Origin: a candidate division WOR-3 bacterium
Lineage (GTDB): Bacteria; Hydrothermota; Tepidihabitantia; Tepidihabitantales; Tepidihabitantaceae
DNA length: 37,318 nucleotides
Assembly: GCA_039801245.1 (NCBI GenBank)
Contig: JBDRUF010000002.1
Location: 1-37,318, forward strand
Reading direction: 5' to 3'
The notes beneath the pieces were generated by a model that was given only the letters and a program-made list of their open reading frames with translations, was not told where the DNA came from and ran no database searches. Position numbers and translations under genes: made by a program. Positions 17,009 to 18,057 of the stretch are shown here, one piece after another; position 1 is the stretch's first letter; every line of letters begins with the position of its first letter.

Positions 17009-17434
17009 ATGCCAGAAAAGGAGAGCCGGGTGCTGCGAACCATTTTGCTTGTCATTCTCATTATTGCTGGGGCGGCTTTAACCATCTTGCCGCACTGGTT
17101 GCGGACCGGCAGGCGCTCATTTAAACCAATTACCCTTGAGGCGCCGGGCAGGTTTTTCCCCTACCCTTCCTTACCGGATTCGGCTGACATCCTTTTCCGG
17201 CTCACCACCGTCATCGACCCGGACCTAAACCTAAGCATTGTTGAACTTGGGCTGGTTGAGACCCTTGCTGTTGACACATCCGCGCAGGTGCGCGTTGTCC
17301 TCGGTCTGACAACGCCCTACTGCCCCTATACCAAAGAGCTGGCACAGGCGGTCCTTGACACCGTTGTTAACACCCCGGGCGTAAAAAGGGCGCAGGTCAA
17401 AATTGACCCCCACCTTACCCGCCCGCTGCGATGA
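17009..17434 (+). CDS. membrane-anchored DUF59 (MIP18/PaaD-like) protein
   Basis: 141 aa. Residues 9-30 form one membrane anchor. Residues 60-135 are a DUF59 domain: 'LTTVIDPDLNLSIVELGLVETLAV', then 'VVLGLTTPYCPYTKELAQAVLDTVVNTPGVKRAQVKI', with the conserved cysteine C105 in the 'T.p.CP' motif. Soluble DUF59 proteins (SufT, MIP18, PaaD) help put iron-sulfur clusters into apo-proteins. A membrane-tethered form is unusual, and the few basic residues at 31-36 suggest the domain may be outside the cytoplasm. It overlaps the CcdA-like gene (ATGA), which could supply electrons to keep C105 reduced; this link is inferred. Confidence 0.8.
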   Translation: MPEKESRVLRTILLVILIIAGAALTILPHWLRTGRRSFKPITLEAPGRFFPYPSLPDSADILFRLTTVIDPDLNLSIVELGLVETLAVDTSAQVRVVLGLTTPYCPYTKELAQAVLDTVVNTPGVKRAQVKIDPHLTRPLR

Positions 17435-18057
17435 GCGCAAGGATAATCCTGCAGGCGCTTGCGCTCGGCTTTTCTGCTGGTAGCTTCTGTCTCGGTTTCT
17501 GCCTGCCGGTTGCCCTGCCTATACTGTTCGGCACAAAAACCTCAGGGGTGCGCACCTCTGCCGTTCGGCTCATCACATTTCTTTCTGGTCGCCTTTGTGC
17601 CTATCTCCTGATTGGCATCATCGCCGGCAGCCTTGGTGCCACCCTTACCCACTCCCTTTTCCTGCGCATCCGGCTATTACCCCTGCTTTACATCCTCCTT
17701 GCCCTCTTACTCATCATCTATGGCATTACTGAAATCAACCCCCTTGCCCGTCTTGCACCCTGCCGCTTTATCCAGCCCGCTATCAACTCAATCTGGTTCC
17801 TGTTTCCTTTAGGCTTTCTTGCCGGTATCAGCCCCTGCCCGCCCTTTCTCTTGGCAATTACCCGCGTCATTGACATCGCCGGCATCATTAACGGCATTCT
17901 TTTCTTTCTTTTCTTCTTTCTCGCCACCTCGCTTTACCTTTTACCTCTCCTCCTTGCCGGCTTTCTCACCCGCTTTTCCCTTATCCGCATCGCTGCCCGC
18001 ATCCTTGCCATTCTCACCGGTCTCTACTTTCTATTTCTTGCCCTTCGAATCGTCTAA
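17431..18057 (+). CDS. CcdA/DsbD-type transmembrane thiol transporter (SafE-like)
   Basis: 208 aa with about six membrane segments. Cysteines lie in helix 1 ('SFCLGFCLPVALP', C20 and C24) and helix 4 ('GISPCPPFLLA', C136), the positions of the redox pair in CcdA/DsbD-beta proteins, where a proline-flanked cysteine in each three-helix half shuttles electrons from cytoplasmic thioredoxin to the outside. A further cysteine is C111. It is translationally coupled to the membrane DUF59 gene through an ATGA overlap. The partner is normally a periplasmic thioredoxin-like protein, but none is adjacent, and the DUF59 protein takes that place. Confidence 0.82.
   Translation: MSARIILQALALGFSAGSFCLGFCLPVALPILFGTKTSGVRTSAVRLITFLSGRLCAYLLIGIIAGSLGATLTHSLFLRIRLLPLLYILLALLLIIYGITEINPLARLAPCRFIQPAINSIWFLFPLGFLAGISPCPPFLLAITRVIDIAGIINGILFFLFFFLATSLYLLPLLLAGFLTRFSLIRIAARILAILTGLYFLFLALRIV

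What the first reader, a model, noticed from the sequence alone, without database searches (positions are those of the whole stretch)
17009..18057. Membrane-anchored DUF59 protein coupled to a CcdA-like electron carrier
DUF59 proteins of the SufT/MIP18 type are normally cytosolic iron-sulfur helpers. Here the domain has an N-terminal membrane anchor and a kept cysteine (C105), and its gene overlaps by ATGA a CcdA/DsbD-type gene whose usual partner is a periplasmic thioredoxin-like protein. The pair may be a redox-supported metal-cluster or thiol maintenance system at the membrane. I know of no description of such a pair.
Basis: partly seen in the sequence, partly recalled or inferred. Interest (0 to 1): 0.55.

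Follow-up and report, generated by a model that had tools for sequence, protein, structure and literature searches.

The report
Membrane-tethered iron-sulfur helper with thiol carrier
Two overlapping genes encode a membrane-anchored relative of iron-sulfur cluster helper proteins and a four-cysteine membrane carrier; the pair recurs in distant bacterial groups and may service iron-sulfur enzymes that work outside the cytoplasm, a job no dedicated system is known to do.

Summary
Window 17009-17434 encodes a DUF59 (PF01883) protein with one N-terminal membrane helix; it overlaps by ATGA a DsbD_2 (PF13386) membrane protein at 17431-18057.

The pairing is a conserved module: 24 loci in 23 genomes, from the window's own family (candidate division WOR-3), Spirochaetota and Desulfuromonadales. 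The genes overlap in 19 of 24. Soluble DUF59 genes used as controls were next to a DsbD_2 gene in 0 of 36 loci. In the window's family the anchored protein is the only DUF59 in the genome.

C105 is not special: it is the standard reactive DUF59 cysteine (24 of 24). The distinctive cysteines are in the carrier: four invariant in 43 of 43 relatives.

Relatives of the carrier sit beside membrane or exported iron-sulfur proteins (NapH-like, AmmeMemoRadiSam radical SAM). In 3 of 3 Spirochaetia pair loci, reductive-dehalogenase-like proteins with two cluster motifs, N-terminal membrane helices and no Tat motif follow.

Best reading: a tethered DUF59 kept active by electrons carried across the membrane, servicing extracytoplasmic iron-sulfur proteins. 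Linkage is shown; sidedness and chemistry are inferred. The window protein's own anchor charges slightly favour the cytoplasmic side. My literature searches found no description.

The parts
17009..17434 (+). membrane-anchored DUF59 protein, 141 aa (stop codon included)
   Evidence: PF01883 E=1.1e-12; model; 1uwd TM0487, profile E=2.8e-32
17012..17110 (+). N-terminal membrane helix, residues 2-34
   Evidence: AlphaFold2 helix 2-34; hydropathy 2.58 over residues 8-26
17183..17398 (+). DUF59 / FeS_assembly_P domain, residues 59-130
17321..17323 (+). codon of C105, the conserved DUF59 cysteine (T-x2/3-C-P)
   Evidence: C105 invariant in 24 of 24 anchored homologues; sequence read
17431..17434 (+). 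ATGA overlap of the two genes
   Evidence: the same 4-nt overlap in 10 of 24 pair loci, some overlap in 19 of 24
17431..18057 (+). four-cysteine DsbD_2 membrane protein, 208 aa (stop codon included)
   Evidence: PF13386 E=2.2e-20; model; CcdA 5vkv Z 6.8, rmsd 3.7, 169 residues
17488..17490 (+). codon of C20 of the DsbD_2 protein (helix 1)
   Evidence: invariant 43 of 43
17500..17502 (+). codon of C24 of the DsbD_2 protein (helix 1)
   Evidence: invariant 43 of 43
17761..17763 (+). codon of C111 of the DsbD_2 protein (loop 3, positive, predicted cytoplasmic side)
   Evidence: invariant 43 of 43
17836..17838 (+). codon of C136 of the DsbD_2 protein (CPP motif, helix 4)
   Evidence: invariant 43 of 43

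Best explanation
The two genes make a two-protein membrane unit. The DsbD_2 protein is a CcdA-like carrier that takes thiol electrons from the cytoplasm and passes them across the membrane through its four invariant cysteines. The DUF59 protein is tethered beside it with its domain on the outer face. Its single reactive cysteine, or the cluster-ligand cysteines of a client held by it, is kept reduced by the carrier, so that iron-sulfur clusters of extracytoplasmic or membrane enzymes can be inserted or repaired. Shown by computation: the two protein families, the anchor, the conserved pairing and overlap, the four cysteines, and the membrane or exported Fe-S proteins beside pairs outside the family and beside solo relatives. 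Inferred: the outside position of DUF59, electron flow, direct contact, and the Fe-S client role.
For: Pair in 24 loci of 23 genomes in three groups, in changing surroundings. Genes overlap in 19 of 24. Soluble DUF59 next to DsbD_2: 0 of 36. In the family both genes are present in 13 of 18 genomes and both absent in 5 of 18; the anchored protein is the only DUF59 found there. A search that started from DUF59 rather than DsbD_2 found 4 anchored forms in 392 Spirochaetota genomes, all 4 beside DsbD_2. Cysteines 20, 24, 111, 136 invariant in 43 of 43. CcdA 5vkv is the third row by Z (6.8) with the lowest rmsd of the list, 3.7 over 169 residues. Loops 1, 3, 5 of the carrier are the positive ones, giving outside termini. 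Neighbours: two-cluster RdhA-like proteins in 3 of 3 Spirochaetia pair loci, with a positive loop before the last helix (outside catalytic domain) and no RR motif in the first 60 residues; anchored AmmeMemoRadiSam rSAM plus an FMN_bind/Fer4_5 protein, on the opposite strand, in 2 of 2 Spirochaetales pair loci. Anchor charges favour N-in/C-out in 14 of 23 rows. The Cys of a soluble SufT is needed for its contacts with SufS, SufU and clients (PMC9045647, passages).
Against: The anchor of the window protein is more positive after the helix (+3) than before it (+1), as in 6 of 23 rows, which favours a cytoplasmic DUF59. DUF59 lacks the CXXC of known CcdA partners. No extracytoplasmic iron or sulfur donor is known to me. 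The window pair has no Fe-S client gene beside it, nor do the family loci show a constant one. Exported rSAM and Fer4_5 proteins also occur in family members without the pair, so they do not explain its distribution. The CcdA match has a middling Z; unrelated transporters score similarly, and no match reached E 0.001 in Foldseek.
Confidence: 0.42

Rival explanations
1. The DUF59 domain lies in the cytoplasm. The anchor docks an otherwise ordinary SufT-like helper at the membrane, next to a DsbD_2 protein, so that clusters are delivered to the cytoplasmic side of membrane Fe-S proteins or the carrier draws electrons from it.
For: C-flank of the anchor more positive than the N-flank in 6 of 23 rows, the window included. 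Soluble DUF59 proteins interact with the cytosolic SUF machinery (PMC9045647, passages). The pair is the only DUF59 in the family, so it may simply be their SufT.
Against: 14 of 23 anchors favour the opposite side, among them all 5 Desulfuromonadales proteins. A CcdA-like carrier has no obvious use for a cytoplasmic partner. The RdhA-like neighbours are predicted outside.
Confidence: 0.27
2. The DsbD_2 protein is not an electron carrier but a transporter of the wider LysE/TauE-like kind that moves a sulfur species (persulfide, sulfide) or a metal past its four cysteines, handing it to DUF59 as building material for clusters outside.
For: Four invariant cysteines instead of the two of CcdA. Fold comparison also lists many transporters at similar Z. 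Recalled, not tested here: thiosulfate transporters of the YeeE type use pore cysteines.
Against: CcdA has the lowest rmsd among listed chains and a similar size. No transporter family matched by sequence apart from a weak PpoB2 hit below cut-off. Solo relatives sit beside electron-transfer proteins of NapH type.
Confidence: 0.13
3. The carrier supplies general thiol reductant to the periplasm (for example to methionine sulfoxide reductase), and DUF59 acts as a scaffold or relay unrelated to iron-sulfur clusters.
For: A signal-bearing MsrAB gene lies downstream of the pair in the Desulfuromonadales locus L131, though not directly. One conserved cysteine suffices for a monothiol relay.
Against: MsrA-like genes were seen near the pair only in Desulfuromonadales loci, with other genes between. 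In Spirochaetota the neighbours are Fe-S proteins.
Confidence: 0.1
4. Chance or hitch-hiking neighbours without functional link.
For: Patchy distribution, for example 4 of 392 Spirochaetota genomes with the anchored form.
Against: Conserved across three groups with gene overlap in 19 of 24; 0 of 36 soluble controls; in the family both genes present or both absent in 18 of 18 genomes.
Confidence: 0.02

Closest known systems
SufT / TM0487-type soluble DUF59 proteins (PF01883, TIGR02945)
   Same: Same domain and reactive-cysteine motif; closest solved structure 1uwd (profile E=2.8e-32).
   Different: N-terminal membrane helix; scores below the SufT model cut-offs (53.4 against 143.4 bits for TIGR02945, 37.2 against 202.6 for TIGR03406); no suf genes among the flanking genes scanned; overlapping gene for a DsbD_2 protein.
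CcdA (solution structure 5vkv) and the DsbD membrane domain
   Same: Helical membrane model that superposes at Z 6.8, rmsd 3.7 over 169 residues; conserved cysteines in helices 1 and 4.
   Different: Belongs to PF13386, not PF02683; two further invariant cysteines (C20, C111); partner without CXXC.
Three-helix hybrid reductive dehalogenases (PMC6797604, 2019)
   Same: The RdhA-like proteins in 3 of 3 Spirochaetia pair loci fit that description: N-terminal helices, two cluster motifs, no Tat motif.
   Different: In the paper's main text the term DsbD has 0 occurrences (passages only); it asks how exoplasmic forms without Tat signal get outside.
AmmeMemoRadiSam radical SAM system (TIGR04337, TIGR04336, TIGR04335)
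   Same: Beside the pair in 2 of 2 Spirochaetales loci and beside solo DsbD_2 relatives, in versions with export signals or anchors.
   Different: A neighbour, not part of the window pair; also present where the pair is absent.

Membership tests
DUF59 / FeS_assembly_P (PF01883) | Pfam score above the gathering cut-off | tested here: met
   48.5 bits against 23.5
DUF59 / FeS_assembly_P (PF01883) | reactive-cysteine motif DPE-X26-31-T-X2/3-C (motif as given in PMC9045647) | tested here: met
   DPx form 24 of 24; strict DPE 21 of 24; the window protein has DPD
SufT (TIGR02945, TIGR03406) | score above the NCBIfam cut-off | tested here: not met
   53.4 against 143.4 and 37.2 against 202.6 bits
SufT (TIGR02945, TIGR03406) | soluble protein without membrane helix | tested here: not met
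   helix 2-34 in the model, hydropathy 2.58; soluble controls 0.49-1.30
SufT (TIGR02945, TIGR03406) | suf operon context (frequent, not strict) | tested here: not met
   flanking genes are GidB, an HD/OB protein, an unmatched protein and an MgsA-type AAA protein
CcdA / DsbD membrane domain | match to the classical DsbD family PF02683 (accession recalled) | tested here: not met
   only PF13386 above cut-off; PF02683 not listed at E up to 1
CcdA / DsbD membrane domain | cysteine in helix 1 and in helix 4 | tested here: met
   C24 (also C20) and C136, 43 of 43
CcdA / DsbD membrane domain | CcdA fold | tested here: inconclusive
   5vkv Z 6.8, rmsd 3.7, 169 residues, but middling Z among unrelated helical rows
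CcdA / DsbD membrane domain | thioredoxin-like CXXC partner | tested here: not met
   the partner is DUF59 with one conserved cysteine; the window protein has one cysteine in all
CcdA / DsbD membrane domain | electron transfer across the membrane | not testable with these tools
   needs biochemistry
DsbD_2 (PF13386) | Pfam score above the gathering cut-off | tested here: met
   73.9 bits against 24.9

The most novel reading that the evidence does not exclude
This is the first recognised dedicated system for building or repairing iron-sulfur clusters outside the cytoplasm: a SufT-like domain on the outer membrane face, kept reduced by a four-cysteine carrier, that lets iron-sulfur enzymes be exported unfolded (without Tat) and matured outside, such as three-helix reductive dehalogenases and exported radical SAM enzymes.
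Probability: 0.27. Interest if true: 0.92.

Novelty: new variant of a known kind. Interest (0 to 1): 0.64.

Why it matters
Extracytoplasmic iron-sulfur enzymes are generally understood (recalled) to get their clusters in the cytoplasm and to be exported folded through Tat. A helper of the SufT family on the outer face would break that rule and would bear on the question asked in PMC6797604 (passage): how reductive dehalogenases with an exoplasmic catalytic part reach the outside without a Tat signal. Even on the weaker reading, it defines a module for which I found no description, ties the poorly understood DUF59 cysteine to a trans-membrane thiol carrier, and gives a two-gene system small enough to test directly.

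Tried and rejected
Chance pairing was rejected. That C105 is a special feature was rejected: it is the standard DUF59 cysteine. Co-occurrence with the AmmeMemoRadiSam rSAM enzyme was tested and is uninformative: 40 of 41 genomes have it, those without the pair included. Co-occurrence with Fer4_5 proteins was likewise uninformative: 19 of 21 (that draw held only 13 of the 18 family genomes). Foldseek gave no match at E 0.001 for the carrier, and no PDB chain matched it by sequence profile. Topology by charge did not settle the side of DUF59. The tree does not join all paired carriers in one clade; it needs 2 changes of the label, with 0 of 500 shuffles as low.

Rows dropped before counts. L032 (cut N-terminus), L124, L126 (CYP instead of CPP), L061-L063 (weak) and L137-L140 (the HCxGMCGP type) were left out of the 43-row carrier alignment A4, so 43 of 43 holds for the rows chosen. 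L011 starts at a contig edge and has no anchor to judge, hence 23 of 24 rows in the charge count. L118 gave no DUF59 hit and is not in the 36. Of the 90 Spirochaetota genomes with a DUF59 hit, only the 30 loci fetched (4 anchored, 26 soluble) were checked for neighbours. The flank checked for the soluble controls is about 1.5 kb a side, less at some contig ends. The pairs outside the family were first found through the DsbD_2 profile, so only the family counts and one search are independent of that choice.

Paper searches: (DUF59 + CcdA, none); no description of the pair seen. From three papers I saw only passages found by terms; for the rest only search listings.

Full report
What is in the window. 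Two genes on the + strand overlap by ATGA: 17009-17434 (141 aa) and 17431-18057 (208 aa). The first matches PF01883, the DUF59 or FeS_assembly_P domain, at residues 59-130 (E=1.1e-12, above cut-off); the second matches PF13386, DsbD_2 (E=2.2e-20, above cut-off). The first scores far below the SufT models. AlphaFold2 models: the DUF59 protein has a helix at 2-34 and then the DUF59 fold (pLDDT 89.6); the DsbD_2 protein is an all-helical membrane protein (pLDDT 81.6, pTM 0.76). Flanking genes are unrelated: a protein without a Pfam match and an HD/OB protein upstream on the other strand, an MgsA-type AAA protein downstream.

The pairing is conserved. A search of 61 genomes (the window's own among them) with the DUF59 protein found anchored homologues in 13 of the 18 genomes of the family, 14 loci because one genome has two copies. 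All 14 have the DsbD_2 gene next to the DUF59 gene, while 8 soluble DUF59 loci from the same class have none. Other neighbours differ from genome to genome. Of the 5 family genomes without the DUF59, none has the DsbD_2 relative and none has any DUF59 by the PF01883 model. In the 13 with it, the anchored protein is the only DUF59 found.

A scan of GTDB genome contigs with the carrier alignment gave 21 loci: 3 from the window's family, 5 further pairs (2 Spirochaetota, 3 Desulfuromonadales) and 13 carriers without DUF59. Named records of the family members read candidate division WOR-3. Follow-up searches in orders and classes raised the pairs outside the family to 10: Spirochaetales 2, another Spirochaetia group 3, Desulfuromonadales 5. 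Total: 24 loci, 23 genomes. The two genes overlap in 19 of 24, by exactly 4 bases in 10 of 24, the latter in all three groups; gaps in the others are 19, 21, 67, 152 and 355 nt.

Controls. An independent search that started from the DUF59 alignment over 392 Spirochaetota genomes gave 4 anchored proteins (E below 1e-40), all beside DsbD_2; the next best match is 3e-28. The 26 further loci fetched are soluble and have no DsbD_2 beside them. With the 8 above and two more (L115, L117), soluble DUF59 beside DsbD_2 is 0 of 36. A sample of 395 genomes of the phylum of G150 gave 9 four-cysteine carriers, 1 with DUF59 (the known one) and 8 without. The carrier therefore also occurs without DUF59; the anchored DUF59 was never seen without the carrier in what was searched.

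Residues. In 24 anchored DUF59 proteins D70, P71, G81, T101, C105 and P106 are invariant. The reactive-cysteine motif is present as DPx in 24 of 24 and as strict DPE in 21 of 24; the window has DPD. The window protein has a single cysteine. In 43 carriers from many phyla, paired and solo, C20, C24, C111 and C136 are invariant. This sets them apart from the HCxGMCGP / LPCG members seen. In the tree, paired carriers need two label changes, against 14.3 on average for shuffled labels.

Fold and topology. Among the chains ranked by Foldseek, CcdA (5vkv) has Z 6.8, rmsd 3.7 over 169 residues, the lowest rmsd in the list, although unrelated transporters reach similar Z and Foldseek itself gave nothing at E 0.001. 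Positive charges fall in loops 1, 3 and 5 of the carrier (paired rows: mean 2.5, 3.4 and 2.1 K+R, against 0.7-1.7 for the others), so both ends are predicted outside and C111 on the cytoplasmic side. For the DUF59 anchor the N-flank is more positive in 14 of 23 rows, equal in 3, less in 6. All 5 Desulfuromonadales anchors favour DUF59 outside; the window protein is one of the 6 that favour inside. Sidedness is therefore likely outside for the module as a whole but not settled for the window protein.

Neighbours. Three solo carriers whose neighbours I scanned sit beside NapH-like membrane Fe-S proteins (L032, L033, L040), and by sequence reading the same type of neighbour appears at others. Further solo carriers have an AmmeMemoRadiSam rSAM gene nearby (L031, L041, L058) or a Memo-AMMECR1 fusion with a lipoprotein-like signal (L041, L126). 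Both Spirochaetales pairs lie convergent to an FMN_bind/Fer4_5 protein and an anchored AmmeMemoRadiSam rSAM enzyme. All three other Spirochaetia pairs are followed by a small membrane protein and by RdhA-like Fe-S proteins: one in each locus that matches TIGR02486 just under its cut-off (147-157 against 160 bits), and in two loci a longer second protein with the same two cluster motifs. All five carry both cluster motifs, no RR motif in the first 60 residues, and N-terminal hydrophobic helices whose positive last loop places the catalytic part outside. PMC6797604 describes three-helix RdhA proteins and asks how exoplasmic ones get outside without Tat (passages).

Mechanism. A soluble SufT of Mycobacterium needs its DUF59 cysteine for contact with SufS, SufU and client proteins and was not found to hold a cluster itself (PMC9045647, passages); the S. 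aureus study reports one strictly conserved cysteine, and the word transmembrane does not occur in its main text (PMC4982691, passages). A reactive cysteine placed outside would need reductant, which a CcdA-like carrier can bring. The most economical reading is a tethered, electron-supplied DUF59 helper for membrane or extracytoplasmic Fe-S proteins. What is shown is the module, its conservation, its residues and its company. What is not shown is the side of the membrane, electron flow, and clients, above all in the window's own family, where no client gene lies next to the pair.

Novelty. Searches for DUF59 with CcdA, DUF59 with membrane-anchored, iron-sulfur cluster with CcdA and SufT, SufT with DUF59, periplasmic or extracytoplasmic Fe-S phrases and DsbD_2/PF13386 listed no description of the pair. 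The library holds open-licence PMC papers only. Both protein families are known; the anchored form and its coupling are a new variant.

Noticed in passing
G000:C3:25734-26738 (L071); L065-L094: A second AmmeMemoRadiSam radical SAM paralogue in this class carries an N-terminal export signal: Tat-like (RRxFLK) in some families (for example L065, L068, L073), Sec-like or anchor in the window's family. An exported radical SAM enzyme would be unusual, as SAM is not known (recalled) to be outside the cytoplasm.
   Followed up: partly
L041:4369-5892, L126:1344-2768: Memo-AMMECR1 (AmmeMemoSam B-A) fusion proteins with lipoprotein-like signals near or beside solo DsbD_2 genes.
   Followed up: partly
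L029, L033-L040, L043, L123, L125, L132: Solo four-cysteine DsbD_2 genes beside NapH-like membrane Fe-S proteins (scanned only in L033 and L040, otherwise by reading) and often a small unmatched protein, in Bacillota, Acidobacteriota, Bacteroidota, Planctomycetota and others; a second, DUF59-free version of the system.
   Followed up: partly
L108:7995-8417, L110:7360-7779: In family f3 a solo carrier stands divergent from an RseC/MucC gene (PF04246 in L110) and upstream of an AmmeMemoRadiSam rSAM gene.
   Followed up: no
L131:2763-3596: Signal-bearing MsrAB downstream of the pair in a Desulfuromonadales genome; MsrA-like sequence also near the pair in L028.
   Followed up: no
L180:4696-6609, L181:4837-6756: A second, longer two-cluster Fe-S protein (638-640 aa, Fer4_7 in the L180 copy) with N-terminal hydrophobic helices in the same Spirochaetia operons.
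   Followed up: partly
G005:C104 and G005:C95 (L010, L022): One family genome holds two copies of the DUF59-DsbD_2 pair in different surroundings.
   Followed up: no
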